Shown one piece after another: positions 4 through 50,274 of a stretch of DNA of 50,305 nucleotides (position 1 is the stretch's first letter; each line of letters opens with the position of its first letter). A program made the position numbers and the translations under genes. Origin of the DNA: Bacteroidota bacterium (GTDB taxonomy: Bacteria; Bacteroidota; Ignavibacteria; Kapaibacteriales; UBA2268); assembly GCA_021780815.1 (NCBI GenBank), contig JAJXYC010000004.1, positions 1 through 50,305 of the forward strand. Reading direction: 5' to 3'. The notes under the pieces are model-generated. The model did no database searches, was not told where the DNA came from, and worked only from the letters and a program-made list of their open reading frames with translations.

Positions 4-869
4 GGCTATAAAGCCAAAATAATTTCTACTATTGTAGATTCCGCCTCTGTAACTACTATAATTTATTAGGCTATAAAGCCAAAATAATTTCTACTATTGT
101 AGATTTATTATTTTTATTGTTATTTAATTTGGCTATAAAGCCAAAATAATTTCTACTATTGTAGATTTGATTTTTTCTTCGTCATTCCATTCAGGCTATA
201 AAGCCAAAATAATTTCTACTATTGTAGATAGCGCTGTGGCTAATGCTGGGAATCGCAAGGGCTATAAAGCCAAAATAATTTCTACTATTGTAGATTTGTT
301 GAGGCACGTTGGCATATTAAGGGGGCTATAAAGCCGAAATAATTTCTACTATTGTAGATGCATCAATTACCCCCCCTGAAAAGCTAGGCTATAAAGCCGA
401 AATAATTTCTACTATTGTAGATTGCCGTTGGGTCAATTTGTGTTTTCATGGCTATAAAGCCGAAATAATTTCTACTATTGTAGATTTGGCAGTTAATGTT
501 TCTATGTTTACGGGGCTATAAAGCCGAAATAATTTCTACTATTGTAGATTTTCGTAATTTTGTATTGTCAAAATTGAGGCTATAAAGCCGAAAATAATTT
601 CTACTATTGTAGATAATTATAATTAACAGACAAATTAATGATGCTATAAAGCCGAAATAATTTCTACTATTGTAGATGTTTGGATGGTTGAAGCCATCAC
701 GGTCAGGCTATAAAGCCGAAATAATTTCTACTATTGTAGATGTTATCGCACTGGCAATCCCCTCTAGGAGGCTATAAAGCCGAAATAATTTCTACTATTG
801 TAGATTAATACCTGTTCTTCTTGCTGAATTGAAGGCTATAAAGCCGAAATAATTTCTACTATTGTAGAT
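4..869 (+). CRISPR. Type V-A (Cas12a-type) CRISPR array, trailer end, 14 repeats
   Basis: Fourteen 36-nt repeats begin at 4, 69, 131, 194, 260, 324, 387, 450, 514, 578, 642, 706, 770 and 834, separated by 13 spacers of 26-30 nt. The 5' part GGCTATAAAGCC folds on itself (GGCT/AGCC). The 3' part AATTTCTACTATTGTAGAT is the Cas12a crRNA handle (stem TCTAC/GTAGA), which places guides immediately 3' of each repeat and sets transcription left to right. Repeats 1-5 have A at position 13 and repeats 6-14 have G. Repeat 10 has one extra A (37 nt) and repeat 11 starts with T instead of G. The array begins at the window edge, so the leader and any cas12a/cas4/cas1/cas2 genes must lie to the left; no cas gene is present in the window. 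Type V-A assignment rests on the repeat alone. Confidence 0.96.
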
Positions 870-906
870 AAAAAAAGTGTCCAACAAAATTAAATTGTTG
901 GACACT
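870..906 (-). terminator. Intrinsic terminator of the nifJ / DHOD-like operon
   Basis: A perfect 12-bp stem (876-887 with 895-906, 7-nt loop) is followed on the minus strand by seven T (complement of 870-876). It ends minus-strand transcription exactly at the last CRISPR repeat. Read on the plus strand there is no T-tract after the stem, so it is not a canonical terminator for the crRNA precursor. Confidence 0.85.
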
Positions 907-5853: not shown

Positions 5854-8800
5854 TTATTTTTTGATAAATTTAAACACTGTTTGTTCTTGTCCATTAGATA
5901 CTTTGAGAAAATATGTTCCAGCAGACAAATTACTTAAATCAACCGTTTGCTTTGAACTTAAATCCTCATTTTGTTGTGAATAAACATTTTTGCCATCGAG
6001 ACTACTGATTTCAACGTTTAAAGGCATATCTTCTTGAGTTATAGCATAGAAATTCAAAATGTTTGCAATAGGATTAGGAAAAGCAATAATCGCAATATTT
6101 CCTTGCGGGCTTAATGCAACGTTGTCTTCATTAATTAAATCTTTATGGTTTGTAACAATAACAGCTAATTTTTTCGTAGCAGAACAACTATTCAAATCTG
6201 TTGCAGTTAAGAAATAATTATTCAATCCAAGAGGAGGAGTTACAACAACATTACTTAAAGTATTACCTTGATTATCCTTCCAAGTTCTTGTATAAGGTGG
6301 TGTTCCGCCAGAAATTGAAGTAACCTGATTATCTAAATTGATTGATTGACCTACGACAATAACTTTAAACAAAGGCATAATAATCAAAGGACCGTTGCTA
6401 ATTGAAACTTTAACAGTTCCATATTTTTGAATACCTGATACATTATCTTTCACAGTTACTGAAAAAGCGGCAAAAGTATTTGGATTAAAATAAGTTGGAT
6501 TACCTGTGTTTGCATTATGCAATAAATTAGATGGAGACCAAGTATATGTAAAATTACCTGAACCACCAGTAGCAGTAATTATATTACCCTCTTCATCTTT
6601 TGTTCCAATTTCAACATCATTCCCTTTGCAAGTAATTTTATCGCTCAAATTCAAAGTAAACATACTATTAATTGTAGTAAAGTCCCAAACATCAGACCAT
6701 TCGCCTGCATTTGATGGATGCACTCCACGGACCTTCCAAAAATATTGTTTTTGTAGTGCTAATCCTGTTAAGTTATAATTAGTTGCAGTTATTCCAGTTT
6801 GATTTTTAACAATATTTGTAAAATTATTATCGGTAGCAACAAGCAAATTATAAGTTGTCGCATTTGTCGCAGATTGCCAAGTCAATGCTGTATTAGTTGG
6901 CATATTTACGGAATTATCTGCTGGTGAAGTTAAAACCACTTTTGTAGGAATTAAAACTTCAATTTGGAAATTCCAAGTAGCAGACCATGGACCAACACCT
7001 CCGGTATTTTCACCTAATACTCGCCAATAATAAGTGCCATTTGATAAATCACTTAATGGATTTGTTAATGTTGTTAAATCAGTCAAATTATACAAAATAT
7101 TAGTAAAATTAGCATCAGTTGCAACTTGCAAACGATATTTATCTGCTCCTACAACTGAATTCCATTCTAAAGTTACATCTTTGGAATATATTTTAGAAGC
7201 ACTTAATGGTAATTTTAAAGTAACTATCGCTGGAACTTGTTGAATTGTAGTAAAGTCCCAGACATCTGACCAAGGTCCATCGCCTGCAACATTTGTTCCA
7301 CACACTCTCCAATAATATTTAGTATTATTTGTAAGTGAAGAATAAACAAATGTTGTTGTAGCTATTCCTGTCTTATTGTAAATCAAATTTGTAAAGTTGA
7401 TGTCTGTAGCTATCTGCAATTTATATGTTGTGGAATTTGATTCACTTTGCCAAGTTACATTATCATTAATTGCAATATTTATTGAATTGCTTATAGGAGT
7501 GGACAATACAACTTTTGTTGGTAAATTGGAAATTGTAGTAAAGTTCCAAACATCTGACCAAGATCCATCACCATCAGCATTTGTTCCACATACTCTCCAA
7601 TAATATTTAGTATTATTTGTAAGTGAAGAATAAGTAAATGTTGTTGTGGCTATTCCTGTTTCATTGTAAATCAAATTGGTAAAATTAGCATCTGTTGCTA
7701 TCTGTAATTTATATGTTGTTGATTTAGGGTCGCTTTGCCAAGTTACATTGCCATTGATTGTAATATTTGTTGAATTGTTTGAAGGAGTTAATAATGCTAT
7801 TTGATTTGGTAAATCAGGAGCAGTAGTAAAAATATAAGTTGGAGTTGCATTATTTGACCAAAGACCATAAGCATTATCATCAATCGCACGTACTTTCCAA
7901 TAGTATGTTTTATTTGAAGCTAATTTTTCATAATCAGCAACTGTATAAGAATTAGAAACAACATCTGTTCTGTGAACAATAGGGTTGTCAAATTGGTTAT
8001 TATCGGCAATCATAATTTCATACTTATCAGATAAATCTATTGCTTGCCAAGTTAAAGTTGGAGTTTGTGAAACATAAGTCGCATTATTTAATGGAGTAGA
8101 AAGCAAAACTGCATTACCACTAAAAATAGATGTTTCCCATATTCCACGGCCATAAGTAGCTATTTTCATTTTAGCAAAAGATGGCTGGTAATCAATTTCA
8201 CTTACAACTACATTTGGCAAATTAGTATTAAAATCTTTCCAAGTAGTTTGTCCTGGGTCTAAATAATAAACACCAATATCGGTACCGACATATAATCGCG
8301 ATGTATTTTTTTGATACATTACAGTATTAGCAGGCAAGTTTGGAAGATTATAAGAGAGATTATTCCAAGTAGAACCGCCATCAGTTGAATAGAATACCTT
8401 GTTTCCACTGCTATAACCAGAAAAAGCACCATAAATAGTTAAAGGAGTTGTATTTTTAATAGCTAAGTAAGTTAAATACAAACCGCTTGGCAATGTTTTA
8501 GTATTCCAAGTAGAACCGCCATCAGTACTCATCATTAAGTCAGTGCCATGACTTGCATAAATAAAAGTACCATTATCAGGGTCAACGTCCAAAACATTCA
8601 AAGTAGAAGAAGAAGAGAAGTTAGAAATTTTAGACCAAGTTGCTCCTCTATCAGTCGTTTTATAAATATTTCTATATCCGACAAAAATAGTTTGCGGATT
8701 TGTTGGATGTTGTACATAAGGAGTTACCCAAGAACCTGCTTCGTTTGAAAAACTTGCGGGAGAAACCCAATCATAGAAATTATTACCACCATCAGTTGAA

Positions 8801-10401
8801 CGTAATATTTCACCATAATATAACTCACCATATTGATAAGTTGTTGTAGTATTATCTACGAAACATTCCATTCCATCGCCACCTATAACATCTTGCCAAG
8901 TGGAACTAACGTAATTTTTTGTACCGTTATCTTGTGCCCCTGCAATCCAAACATCTTGATTTGTTTGAGAAGCACCTATCCTATAAAATTGAGTAATAGT
9001 AAGTCCTGACCCAATCCAATTCCAATTAGTTCCCCCATCAGTAGTATTATAAACACCACCATCGCATCCATTGTATAAACGATTTGTACCTGGTGCGAAC
9101 CATAAATTATGTTGGTCAGCATGAACTGCTGGAACACCATCACCCCACCAATGTGCATTTATAGACCAATTGACTCCTCCATTTGTTGATTTCCATATAT
9201 TTACACCACCAGTATAAATTATATTTGCATTTGATTGGTCAACTGCTATACATAAATCATACCAACCTTGTCCACCAGAGTCTCCGCCGTCAGAATTCCA
9301 ACCTAACAGATTTGGTGTTGTTGCTTGTGTTGTCCAAGAATCTCCGCTATCTGTTGAACGATATAATCCCAAAAATCCTGAGCTTGAATTTGACATCAAA
9401 GCATATACATAATTTGAATTTGCTGGCGAAACACCTAATGCAACTCTTTGAGCAGATGAAGGCAAACCACTTGTTAACTGACTCCAATTTGCACCCGCAT
9501 CTGTTGAACGATAAATATATACTCCCGAAGCATAAATGATAGAGGAATTGCCTGGTTTTAGTTCCATATCTTTAACTGACATAGAACTAAAGATTTGTGT
9601 CCAATTTGCACCTGCATCTGTTGTTTTATAAATTCCAGATGATCCACCTGCATATAAAATATTAGAATTTGATGGGTCCATTAAAAGTCGGCTAATAGTA
9701 CGTGCTTGTGATTGTGTCCAATTCAAACCAGTAGTATTCCACGTATTTCCTCCATCAGTAGATTTCATAACTCCTATACTATATGCATCACCAGCATCGC
9801 CATCACCTGTGGCAATATAAACAATATTTGAATTATTTTTATCAACAATAACATCAGTAACTCCAATACTTCCTAATTCGTCAGTAGTTGTAGACCAAGT
9901 TGTTCCGTCATTTGTTGATTTCCATAATCCACCACTTGCGGCACCAATATATATAGTACTGGAATTATTTGGGTCTTCTTGCACGGCATTTATTCTTCCT
10001 AATCCAGCATATCCACCAGGAGAAGTTGATGGACCCAAAGATGTCCAATTTGCTGCGGATTGAATTTTATTTTTATTTTTATCTACTCCGTTCACTCTTT
10101 GAAATGACTTTAACTCATTATAAGTTTGGTCGGCTGCAGGGAAGTTCCCACTTGGATATACTCTTTGAGCCCAAAACCATTCCCAACGTTTAAATTGTTT
10201 CCAACCTAAACCTTTTTTAGTCGTATCTTTACCTGAAACATATTCATAGAATGATTTCTGAATATCGTAGAAATTATAATTATCTTTGATTTGAGGTGGA
10301 TTTTCCTTTTTTAAATTATCCATCCAAGGTTGTGAAAATACTTTATTTGTTAGCAAAAAAATAAATAGAAAAGTTAAAAAGTAGATTACTTTTCGGTTCA
10401 T
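5854..10401 (-). CDS. Secreted Asp-box propeller / FN3 protein with T9SS sorting domain
   Basis: This is a 1515-residue exported multidomain protein. A signal peptide ending near FSQ precedes a long region (about 100-760) of sialidase/sortilin-type Asp-box repeats, for example KSTDGGNTWN, RSTDAGANWS and STDGGSTWN, which form beta-propellers. Five FN3 domains follow (about 764-1245, each with a YYWRV motif), then Ig/SprB-like sandwich repeats (about 1246-1420), then a type A T9SS sorting domain with AFPNPIANIL and LSAGTYFLKV. It is therefore expected outside the outer membrane. Two FN3 units are near-duplicates. An ATG at 10413 is possible, but GGAG at 10411-10408 sits 6 nt before the ATG at 10401, which leads straight into the signal peptide, so 10401 is chosen. 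Its substrate cannot be read from sequence. Confidence 0.92.
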   Translation of the reverse strand: MNRKVIYFLTFLFIFLLTNKVFSQPWMDNLKKENPPQIKDNYNFYDIQKSFYEYVSGKDTTKKGLGWKQFKRWEWFWAQRVYPSGNFPAADQTYNELKSFQRVNGVDKNKNKIQSAANWTSLGPSTSPGGYAGLGRINAVQEDPNNSSTIYIGAASGGLWKSTNDGTTWSTTTDELGSIGVTDVIVDKNNSNIVYIATGDGDAGDAYSIGVMKSTDGGNTWNTTGLNWTQSQARTISRLLMDPSNSNILYAGGSSGIYKTTDAGANWTQIFSSMSVKDMELKPGNSSIIYASGVYIYRSTDAGANWSQLTSGLPSSAQRVALGVSPANSNYVYALMSNSSSGFLGLYRSTDSGDSWTTQATTPNLLGWNSDGGDSGGQGWYDLCIAVDQSNANIIYTGGVNIWKSTNGGVNWSINAHWWGDGVPAVHADQHNLWFAPGTNRLYNGCDGGVYNTTDGGTNWNWIGSGLTITQFYRIGASQTNQDVWIAGAQDNGTKNYVSSTWQDVIGGDGMECFVDNTTTTYQYGELYYGEILRSTDGGNNFYDWVSPASFSNEAGSWVTPYVQHPTNPQTIFVGYRNIYKTTDRGATWSKISNFSSSSTLNVLDVDPDNGTFIYASHGTDLMMSTDGGSTWNTKTLPSGLYLTYLAIKNTTPLTIYGAFSGYSSGNKVFYSTDGGSTWNNLSYNLPNLPANTVMYQKNTSRLYVGTDIGVYYLDPGQTTWKDFNTNLPNVVVSEIDYQPSFAKMKIATYGRGIWETSIFSGNAVLLSTPLNNATYVSQTPTLTWQAIDLSDKYEIMIADNNQFDNPIVHRTDVVSNSYTVADYEKLASNKTYYWKVRAIDDNAYGLWSNNATPTYIFTTAPDLPNQIALLTPSNNSTNITINGNVTWQSDPKSTTYKLQIATDANFTNLIYNETGIATTTFTYSSLTNNTKYYWRVCGTNADGDGSWSDVWNFTTISNLPTKVVLSTPISNSINIAINDNVTWQSESNSTTYKLQIATDINFTNLIYNKTGIATTTFVYSSLTNNTKYYWRVCGTNVAGDGPWSDVWDFTTIQQVPAIVTLKLPLSASKIYSKDVTLEWNSVVGADKYRLQVATDANFTNILYNLTDLTTLTNPLSDLSNGTYYWRVLGENTGGVGPWSATWNFQIEVLIPTKVVLTSPADNSVNMPTNTALTWQSATNATTYNLLVATDNNFTNIVKNQTGITATNYNLTGLALQKQYFWKVRGVHPSNAGEWSDVWDFTTINSMFTLNLSDKITCKGNDVEIGTKDEEGNIITATGGSGNFTYTWSPSNLLHNANTGNPTYFNPNTFAAFSVTVKDNVSGIQKYGTVKVSISNGPLIIMPLFKVIVVGQSINLDNQVTSISGGTPPYTRTWKDNQGNTLSNVVVTPPLGLNNYFLTATDLNSCSATKKLAVIVTNHKDLINEDNVALSPQGNIAIIAFPNPIANILNFYAITQEDMPLNVEISSLDGKNVYSQQNEDLSSKQTVDLSNLSAGTYFLKVSNGQEQTVFKFIKK
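7244..7819 (-). repeat. Tandem duplication of a 288-bp FN3-domain unit
   Basis: Two adjacent in-frame units, 7244-7531 and 7532-7819, each encode 96 residues and remain very similar at DNA level, with long identical stretches (for example around 7297-7345 and 7586-7635). They encode neighbouring FN3 domains. Flanking FN3 units have the same fold but much less DNA similarity, so this copy arose recently. Confidence 0.85.
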
Positions 10402-10425
10402 CGCAAACTCCATTTTATAAAAAGA

Positions 10426-21511: not shown

Positions 21512-21596
21512 TGCAGAAAGAGAGACTCGAACTCTCACGGCTTTAAGGGCCACTGGATTTTGAGTCCAGCGCGTCTACCAATTCCGCCATTTCTGC
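21512..21596 (-). tRNA. tRNA-Leu (anticodon CAA)
   Basis: An 85-nt class II tRNA. The acceptor stem GCAGAAA/TTTCTGC, the D-arm with GGTAGACGC, the anticodon stem CTGGA/TCCAG with loop CTCAAAA (anticodon CAA), a short variable arm, and the T-arm GAGAG-TTCGAGT-CTCTC can all be drawn. The discriminator base is A. CCA is not encoded, because the next bases are C then T, followed by a run of nine T that may end the transcript. It reads UUG. Confidence 0.96.
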
Positions 21597-21609
21597 ATCT
21601 TGATTGATG

Positions 21610-21684
21610 TGGGCAAGGAGGGAGTCGAACCCCCGACCCTCTGCTTGTAAGGCAGATGCTCTAGACCAACTGAGCTACTTGCCC
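21610..21684 (-). tRNA. tRNA-Val (anticodon UAC)
   Basis: A 75-nt tRNA with acceptor stem GGGCAAG/CTTGCCC, D-arm AGCTCAGTTGGTCTAGAGC, anticodon stem TCTGC/GCAGA with loop CTTACAA (anticodon TAC) and T-arm GGGGG-TTCGACT-CCCTC. The discriminator is A and CCA is not encoded. It lies 13 bp upstream of tRNA-Leu on the same strand, so both probably share a transcript from the promoter at 21698-21728. Confidence 0.96.
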
Positions 21685-48948: not shown

Positions 48949-50274
48949 CTACATCTTTACAAATTTTATTGGCTTTTCATTTCCAATTTTCAGAAAATAA
49001 ATTCCCGTGGAAAGTGTGCTTATATTTATCCGGTAACTTTGATCTGTCGGATAAATTTCTTCTGCTTTTACACGATACCCGTACACATCAAAGATTTCAA
49101 CGGAAACTCCTACTTGTCCCATTAGAAAAGGAGAATTGAAAATGATATAATCCGTTGCGGGATTTGGGAAAATTTTGTATTTTTCTGTGAAAAATGGGTC
49201 AGAAACGGAAACAATGTTGTTGTCGAGAAGCCAAATCTGACTATTTTCTAACGATGTAACTATTAACGAGTTATTGTTGTTAAAATTAATAAAATATGGT
49301 CCACCACAACCATAATAGACATGTTCTTCTTTAAAATTTGGATATATACATTTTTTAATTCCAAAAGTATGTAAAACAAATGTATAATAAATATTTTTCA
49401 TATCACTTGACCACCCAAAATTATCTATTCCTGCATAATCACTTTCCCATACCACCGAATAATCCGTTGTAGAGTAAAGCGTAAGTTTGCCATCGTGCTG
49501 ATAACCTAATACACTGCCGTCGGGGGAGTATTTGAGCTTTGCATGATTATAATCTGTTATATTTCCTACAACAAACTCTTTAATTTTATTATTTTTTTTA
49601 ATATTCCAAATTTCTATTTTGACTGTATCAAATTGCCATTCACCATTTTTGTAAATCAGCCCAGATGCTAAATATGCAACATTTTCTCCGTTTGGATTTA
49701 TACTATTTGCTAAAACTCTGTATCGTGTATTTGTGTTTGATTTTACTCCAAGTATCTTTGAATCTGTTGGTTCAAAAATTACAATATTACTGTCAAAGTC
49801 CATAGTATATTGAGTTGAACGAACAATCCCGTGCCAAGTTGTTCCTACGCTTATATTATATTTGTCATTAATATTAACATCCCAATAATCTACTTTAGGC
49901 CACTGATATAACGAAATATTATTTGATGAAAAATCTGATAACTTCTTAAATGTGTTTGCATCATACTTATCACCATTGTAATTCCAGAAAAATTGACCGT
50001 CTTCTGAAAATTGGCGTATTCCTCCGATTGTGTCAATTGTATCAATGACATTTCCTTGTAAATCGTATTTAAATACGGAATAAGGTGCTTTGTTGTCTTC
50101 GTTATAACAACCAGTTGCGTAAATATATTGGTCATCTGGACTAAACACTGCATTTGACAATCGCAATGGCCACACATTTTTTGTCCAAAGAGTATCCTTT
50201 CCCTGCGAAAACGCTTGCTGTCCGCTGACGAACAAAAATATTGTGAATATAAGAAGTATAATTGATTTTTTCAT
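48949..50274 (-). CDS. Secreted beta-propeller protein with T9SS sorting domain
   Basis: The 441-residue protein has a signal peptide (cleavage near AFSQG), about 340 residues of WD40/propeller-like repeats (LSNAVFSPDDQYIYATG, KLKYSPDGSVLGYQHDG, GWSSDMKNIYYTF), and a complete type A T9SS domain (IFPNPATDYIIF, STLSTGIYFLKIG, FVKM at the end). It would be exported across the outer membrane. Its role is unknown; the propeller suggests protein binding. It converges on the FN3 gene with 45 bp between stops and no clear hairpin. No SD is seen before the ATG, and its promoter lies in the last 31 bases or beyond the window. Confidence 0.87.
   Translation of the reverse strand: MKKSIILLIFTIFLFVSGQQAFSQGKDTLWTKNVWPLRLSNAVFSPDDQYIYATGCYNEDNKAPYSVFKYDLQGNVIDTIDTIGGIRQFSEDGQFFWNYNGDKYDANTFKKLSDFSSNNISLYQWPKVDYWDVNINDKYNISVGTTWHGIVRSTQYTMDFDSNIVIFEPTDSKILGVKSNTNTRYRVLANSINPNGENVAYLASGLIYKNGEWQFDTVKIEIWNIKKNNKIKEFVVGNITDYNHAKLKYSPDGSVLGYQHDGKLTLYSTTDYSVVWESDYAGIDNFGWSSDMKNIYYTFVLHTFGIKKCIYPNFKEEHVYYGCGGPYFINFNNNNSLIVTSLENSQIWLLDNNIVSVSDPFFTEKYKIFPNPATDYIIFNSPFLMGQVGVSVEIFDVYGYRVKAEEIYPTDQSYRINISTLSTGIYFLKIGNEKPIKFVKM

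What the first reader, a model, noticed from the sequence alone, without database searches (positions are those of the whole stretch)
4..869. Cas12a-type CRISPR array cut by the window edge; effector genes expected just to the left
The repeat ends in the Cas12a crRNA handle AATTTCTACTATTGTAGAT, and its 5' part is a separate small hairpin (GGCT-ATAA-AGCC). The array runs to base 4, so leader and cas12a/cas4/cas1/cas2 are outside. A type V-A system in this lineage is a possible source of a divergent Cas12a, with the handle loop TATT.
Basis: partly seen in the sequence, partly recalled or inferred. Interest (0 to 1): 0.72.

Follow-up and report, generated by a model that had tools for sequence, protein, structure and literature searches.

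The report
CRISPR array with swapped second nuclease
The repeats are the far end of a 132-repeat CRISPR array whose genes lie on another contig: an ordinary Cas12a DNA cutter and, beside it, a probable RNA-triggered nuclease related to the tRNA-cutting Cas12a3 but lacking the domain that loads tRNA in the studied member, in a gene slot that bacteria appear to have exchanged repeatedly.

Summary
Window 4-869 holds 14 copies of a 36-nt type V-A repeat. The window is a whole contig; its first 66 nt equal the end of contig C15 of the same genome, which carries 119 repeats (one shared) and, behind the leader, cas2, cas1, cas4, a second effector and cas12a. The break is an assembly artefact at a duplicated spacer block; joined, the array has 132 repeats.

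The Cas12a is ordinary. Its best relatives are Cas12a3 nucleases (RNA-triggered tRNA-tail cutters). RuvC triad and zinc ribbon are intact, but the tRNA-loading domain (tRLD) of Ba1Cas12a3 is absent. Five such tRLD-less proteins form one side of a fully supported split. One is probably Sm3Cas12a3, reported to cut tRNA tails, so the tRLD may not be universal.

The second-effector gene also has its own history: here it is 74% identical to a Smithella protein, while Cas12a and Cas1 group with loci carrying other effectors. Two Smithellaceae loci with 93% identical cas12a DNA have 40% identical second effectors. I read this as repeated exchange of one gene slot. Activity is inferred; no protospacer was found.

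The parts
4..869 (+). Distal (3') end of the type V-A CRISPR array: 14 repeats of 36 nt, 13 spacers; the remaining 118 repeats are on contig C15
1..66 (+). Exact overlap with the end of contig C15 (reverse strand), inside a repeat-spacer unit; the spacer at 40-68 also occurs further up the array, which explains the assembly break
324..869 (+). Nine terminal repeats with the variant GCCGAAA instead of GCCAAAA (oldest end of the array)
876..906 (-). Perfect 12-bp hairpin followed by a T run on the - strand: terminator-like for the convergent dihydroorotate dehydrogenase-like gene (947-1945), placed so that it would stop antisense transcripts before the array (function inferred)
   Evidence: gene:

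Best explanation
The array serves a type V-A locus with two effectors that probably share its crRNAs: order cas12a - second effector - cas4 - cas1 - cas2 - leader - 132 repeats. Cas12a would cut matching DNA (established for the family). The second effector is a nuclease on the Cas12a3 branch that lacks the tRNA-loading domain. Most likely it is activated when its crRNA pairs with phage RNA next to a permissive flank and then cuts RNA in trans with its RuvC site, stopping growth of the infected cell: a back-up if Cas12a fails. Shown here by sequence: the locus, intact catalytic residues, the missing tRLD, and the separate history of this gene. Inferred: shared crRNAs, RNA triggering, RNA cutting, growth arrest. 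tRNA tails are the first candidate substrate (about even odds), because a probable tRLD-less relative, Sm3Cas12a3, cuts them. The second-effector slot is exchanged between loci, most simply by recombination with one edge at the cas12a/effector junction and the other near the end of the effector gene (inside its last ~60 codons in the two cases where an edge can be seen).
For: Contig join and array. Locus genes. Second effector hits Cas12a3 only, over its full length (21we E 1e-143, Ba1Cas12a3 E 2e-129). Triad D695/E916/D1046 = Ba1 D712/E1032/D1137; zinc-ribbon cysteines kept; Ba1 R902, Y922, N924 have no counterpart. The segment holding the tRLD is 51 aa here and 130-146 aa in tRLD-bearing proteins. 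AlphaFold model of residues 655-1061 (pTM 0.79) aligns 365 residues to Ba1Cas12a3 679-1152 (Z 29.4, rmsd 3.3), leaving about 109 chain residues unmatched, the size of the tRLD. tRLD-less/tRLD-bearing split 100/100 with insert columns removed. Exchange: effector groups with Smithella SCADC (100/100), but Cas1 and Cas12a group with L034/L040 (AU rejects grouping with Smithella: p 0.0016 and 2e-8), and the effector data reject grouping with L034/L040 (p 3e-5). L029 vs L051: 93.5% DNA identity through cas12a, lost at the effector start codon, regained ~60 codons before its stop. RNA triggering and tRNA cutting in the clade: PMC12851939.
Against: No activity was or could be tested. No protospacer was found, so neither RNA targeting nor a flank preference can be read from spacers. 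Removing the tRLD from Ba1Cas12a3 strongly reduced its activity (PMC12851939), so a natural tRLD-less form may have another substrate. That L051 is Sm3Cas12a3 is circumstantial. L051 also has a 148-aa REC2 loop that this protein lacks, so even Sm3's behaviour may not carry over. The direction and number of exchanges are not resolved with this few loci.
Confidence: 0.72

Rival explanations
1. The tRLD-less branch is what PMC12851939 calls Cas12a4: an RNA-triggered RNase that also cuts its target and other RNA broadly, without tRNA-tail preference.
For: Cas12a4 is described as a separate clade with RuvC, zinc ribbon and RNA-only cutting; no Cas12a4 sequence is held here, so it could not be compared. 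The protein lacks both tRNA-contacting features described for Ba1Cas12a3.
Against: The branch very probably contains Sm3Cas12a3, which that paper files as Cas12a3 and shows cutting tRNA tails: G218:C184 has 23 spacers, tandem type V genes at ORFs 54/55 and a 2.7-Mb genome, against 23 spacers, genes 53:54 and 2.75 Mb published for Smithella M82_1.
Confidence: 0.2
2. It is a Cas12a2: RNA-triggered, shredding DNA and RNA alike.
For: Same architecture outside the tRLD, including zinc ribbon and a short insertion segment; Cas12a2 is the second-best structural match (Z 23.7); cas12a2 also occurs in tandem with cas12a (PMC9811890).
Against: 57 bits to SuCas12a2 against 593-663 bits to Cas12a3 for the same profile. 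Of the clamp residues needed for cutting duplex DNA, Y1069 and Y1080 align with K922 and I934.
Confidence: 0.06
3. The second effector is a DNA-targeting variant: a review lists SmCms1 from Smithella sp. as a genome editor with a TTN PAM, possibly the 74% identical L029 protein.
For: PMC7642200 reports SmCms1 as a small type V-A nuclease used in rice; the identity with L029 is a guess from the organism name.
Against: SuCms1 in the same list comes from Sulfuricurvum sp. PC08-66, the organism of SuCas12a2, which needs RNA as trigger. The Nuc domain of Cas12a is replaced by a zinc ribbon.
Confidence: 0.04
4. The tree conflict comes from exchange of cas12a and the cas4-cas1-cas2 block around a resident effector, not from movement of the effector.
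For: Tree conflict alone does not say which part moved; few loci are available.
Against: It needs parallel changes on both sides of the effector with matching partners (L034/L040 for Cas12a and for Cas1). In L029/L051 the flanks on both sides are near-identical and only the effector differs, and both effectors are richer in A+T than their flanks.
Confidence: 0.15

Closest known systems
Cas12a3 (Ba1Cas12a3 and BaCas12a3; PMC12851939, PDB 9hlx/9hm4-6, 21we/21wj)
   Same: Full-length homology (37-40% identity), RuvC triad, zinc ribbon, same crRNA handle type, position between cas12a and cas4 in several loci
   Different: No tRNA-loading domain; T-arm-contacting REC2 loop not conserved; 1061 aa against 1137-1210 aa
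Second effector of Smithella sp. SCADC (L029, possibly SmCms1) and of G218:C184 (L051, probably Sm3Cas12a3)
   Same: Both lack the tRLD; L029 is 74% identical over the full length; both sit directly behind cas12a
   Different: L051 has a 148-aa REC2 loop against 47 aa here; flanking Cas12a, Cas4, Cas1 and Cas2 belong to another lineage
Cas12a2 (SuCas12a2, PDB 8d49-8d4b; PMC9849127, PMC9811890)
   Same: Overall architecture, zinc ribbon, tandem arrangement with cas12a
   Different: Very weak sequence similarity (57 bits), two aromatic-clamp positions not conserved
Cas12a (ReChb, PDB 8qwd; TIGR04330)
   Same: The first effector of this locus is an ordinary member
   Different: The second effector has no Pfam Cas12a domain hit, Nuc included

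Membership tests
Type V-A CRISPR-Cas locus | Cas12a equivalog with cas4, cas1, cas2 and an array with the Cas12a handle | tested here: met
Cas12a3 branch (second effector) | Closest relatives in sequence are Cas12a3, over the full length | tested here: met
   E 1e-143 and 2e-129, no other PDB hit at E up to 1; profile 593-663 bits
Cas12a3 branch (second effector) | RuvC catalytic triad and zinc ribbon intact | tested here: met
   D695, E916, D1046; C998, C1001, C1025, C1028
Cas12a3 branch (second effector) | tRNA-loading domain with R902, Y922, N924 (numbering of Ba1Cas12a3) | tested here: not met
   Segment 51 aa instead of 130-146; the three residues unaligned; model leaves ~109 chain residues unmatched. 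Hence not filed as a tRLD-type Cas12a3
Cas12a3 branch (second effector) | REC2 loop contacting the tRNA T-arm (R251, N253, K256, K257) | tested here: inconclusive
   Three of four unaligned, but the loop is also variable among tRLD-bearing proteins
Cas12a3 branch (second effector) | RNA-triggered cutting of tRNA tails, target spared | not testable with these tools
   needs biochemistry
Cas12a4 | Grouping with ApCas12a4 | not tested
Cas12a2 | Aromatic clamp Y1069 and Y1080 (SuCas12a2) | tested here: not met
   align with K922 and I934, read by hand from the profile alignment; Y465 and F1092 not judged (for the residues)
Cas12a (second effector) | Nuc domain and REC1/REC2/PI Pfam domains | tested here: not met
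   only a sub-threshold TNB zinc-ribbon hit

The most novel reading that the evidence does not exclude
The tRLD-less proteins are a separate functional type (an RNA-triggered nuclease with a substrate other than tRNA tails, or with another way of gripping tRNA), and type V-A loci treat the gene between cas12a and cas4 as an exchangeable effector slot, letting hosts change how the cell is shut down while keeping Cas12a, the adaptation genes and the spacer memory.
Probability: 0.4. Interest if true: 0.78.

Novelty: new variant of a known kind. Interest (0 to 1): 0.6.

Why it matters
The 2026 description of Cas12a3 explains tRNA-tail cutting by the tRLD. A branch without it, probably including the already tested Sm3Cas12a3, makes that explanation directly testable: either other parts of the protein select tRNA, or these enzymes cut something else. 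At 1061 aa this is also the shortest member of the family found here. Exchange of the second effector alone, next to an unchanged Cas12a and array, would show how a CRISPR locus can change its response without losing its memory.

Tried and rejected
Divergent Cas12a: rejected. Relatives of the second effector in phages, plasmids and viral contigs: none. Close relatives of the genome: none of 197 others carry it at any convincing score; further searches of 395 genomes each of the own phylum and of the Smithella phylum gave only the known loci plus two marginal zinc-ribbon hits. Campylobacterales hits to PADLOC PDLC01235 proved to be Cas12a where read (G293, G305, G522, G644), not Cas12a2. Protospacers: blastn of the C15 part of the array (118 of 131 spacers) against phages and plasmids gave no significant hit; four exact scans of viral contigs with recurring spacers gave none; no self-match with up to 3 mismatches in the own-genome stretches in hand (window outside the array and C15:7641-32000). 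The best phage hit (MT835469, E 0.06) is eight repeat pieces on one AT-rich spot, taken as chance. Whole-protein AlphaFold model too poor in the RuvC part (pLDDT 64), so that part was folded alone.

Full report
Observation. The window starts inside a CRISPR array: 14 repeats of 36 nt at 4-869, ending in AATTTCTACTATTGTAGAT. Each repeat folds into a 5' hairpin (GGCT-ATAA-AGCC) and the handle stem, both in the minimum-energy structure.

The join. The window is the entire contig C20 of its genome (2.63 Mb, 20 contigs). The same repeat occurs 119 times on the reverse strand of contig C15 from its first bases. The last 66 nt of C15 (reversed) equal the first 66 nt of the window exactly. Two neighbouring spacers (113-114) recur at 117-118, right at the join, which explains why the assembly broke there. 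Joined, the array has 132 repeats and 131 spacers (128 different) over 8.4 kb. The last nine repeats carry the variant GCCGAAA. The adjacency is an inference from the overlap and orientation, not from reads.

The locus. On C15, transcribed towards the array: cas12a (16582-12809, 1257 aa), a 1061-aa gene (12802-9617), cas4 (9614-9048), cas1 (9061-8090), cas2 (8082-7807), a leader of about 175 nt, then the array. Pfam, NCBIfam and PADLOC name cas12a, cas4, cas1 and cas2 without doubt. The Cas12a is an ordinary member close to the solved ReChb.

The second effector. The 1061-aa protein has no Pfam domain above threshold and no NCBIfam family; PADLOC puts it under special Cas12a models. Against all solved structures only two sequences match, both Cas12a3, over the full length. 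The catalytic triad and the zinc ribbon are intact. The alignment skips the part of Ba1Cas12a3 (about 855-960) that PMC12851939 named the tRNA-loading domain, with its residues R902, Y922 and N924. AlphaFold of residues 655-1061 (pLDDT 74, pTM 0.79) shows a RuvC lobe that superposes on Ba1Cas12a3 (365 residues, rmsd 3.3, Z 29.4), better than on Cas12a2 (Z 23.7) or Cas12a (Z below 18), with about 109 chain residues of Ba1Cas12a3 unmatched and three short strands in the model at that place.

Relatives. One scan of species genomes gave 12 loci. L035 is Ba1Cas12a3 itself and L038 the 21we protein (100% over the compared parts). The closest is Smithella sp. SCADC (L029, 74%, 1064 aa). A Smithellaceae genome adds L051. 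The insertion segment is 51-59 aa in this protein, L029, L030 and L051, 78 in L039, 87 in L040 and 130-146 in the others. With the insert columns removed, the five short ones are one side of a 100/100 branch. Most of these effectors sit right behind a cas12a (L029, L030, L039, L051, L034, L035, L037, L040; L033 with a gap); the genomes of L031, L036, L038 and L032 gave no PF18516 Cas12a hit.

Probable identity of L051. PMC12851939 tested Sm3Cas12a3 from Smithella sp. M82 and found tRNA-tail cutting, with sites shifted upstream and a strict need for the cytosines. The published M82_1 genome has 2.75 Mb, one type V gene pair at positions 53:54 of scaffold 536 and 23 spacers there. The G218 contig has 23 spacers, the pair at ORFs 54/55 (ORFs of 60 aa or more) and a 2.7-Mb genome. 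So L051 is very probably Sm3Cas12a3, and it lacks the tRLD. In the passages of the main text that I read, the tRLD is described from Ba1Cas12a3 only, and its absence elsewhere is not mentioned. L051 has a 148-aa stretch at the REC2 loop that contacts the T-arm in Ba1Cas12a3, against 46-81 aa in all others; this protein and L029 lack both features, so tRNA preference cannot be assumed for them.

Exchange of the second effector. Three comparisons disagree with common descent of the whole locus. (1) This genome: the effector is closest to Smithella SCADC, but Cas4, Cas1 and Cas2 are 64-68% identical to those of L034/L040 where present (tRLD-bearing or intermediate effectors) and 39-46% to Smithella; Cas1 and Cas12a trees place it with L034/L040, AU tests reject grouping with Smithella, and the effector tree rejects grouping with L034/L040. 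(2) L029 and L051: 93.5% DNA identity through cas12a, lost at the effector's start and back at 83-92% from about 60 codons before its stop and through cas4; the effectors are 40% identical, and being sisters is rejected (p 0.0028). (3) L030: Cas12a groups with L035 and L033 (tRLD-bearing effectors), effector with this protein. In the comparison of this locus with L029, similarity starts 157 bp before the end of cas12a and stops about 183 bp before the effector's stop codon, the same right edge as in (2). Recombination through the conserved cas12a end and the conserved zinc-ribbon/RuvC-III end is the simplest reading. The groupings were chosen after seeing identities, so the AU values are descriptive, and the Cas12a tree was a quick one with long branches elsewhere.

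How it would work. By analogy with tandem Cas12a/Cas12a2 systems, which share one array (PMC9811890), both effectors would draw crRNAs from this array. Cas12a cuts DNA; the second effector would respond to phage RNA and cut RNA in trans. The absent tRLD leaves the substrate open. None of this was tested.

What was not found. No protospacers, no phage-borne relatives, no other carrier among sampled close relatives.

Noticed in passing
L051:9662-13312 (G218:C184), REC2 region: 148-aa stretch at the place of the T-arm-contacting loop of Ba1Cas12a3 (46-81 aa in all other relatives); a possible alternative tRNA grip in the probable Sm3Cas12a3.
   Followed up: partly
L030:11606-11608: Second effector of Bacteroidetes SZAS-28 has one in-frame TGA; broken gene or sequencing error.
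   Followed up: no
L051:13870-14091: cas1 of this Smithellaceae locus is only a 74-aa fragment followed closely by cas2; the adaptation module looks broken.
   Followed up: partly
L040:3943-7368: Campylobacteraceae effector has an intermediate insertion segment (87 aa) and branches first among the tRLD-bearing proteins; possibly an early or reduced tRLD.
   Followed up: no
window 4-869 and arrays of L029, L031, L051: The 5' hairpin of the repeat is kept with paired changes between loci (GGCT/AGCC here, GTCT/AGAC in L031 and L051, GTCC/GGAC in L029), although this part precedes the crRNA handle.
   Followed up: partly
window spacers and L022:1-7631: Recurring or nearly identical spacers (46/54, 113-114/117-118, 16/89, 98/112, 99/123), suggesting internal duplication and repeated acquisition from related invaders.
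   Followed up: partly
window 21512-21684 (-): Two tRNA genes 13 bases apart.
   Followed up: no
window 5854-10413 (-), 48949-50274 (-): Proteins with Por secretion (type IX) sorting tails, in keeping with a Bacteroidota genome.
   Followed up: no
L031:13493-15435, L038:13286-15291, L030:13325-16342: Gaps of about 2-3 kb between the second effector and cas4, possibly holding an extra gene; not read.
   Followed up: no
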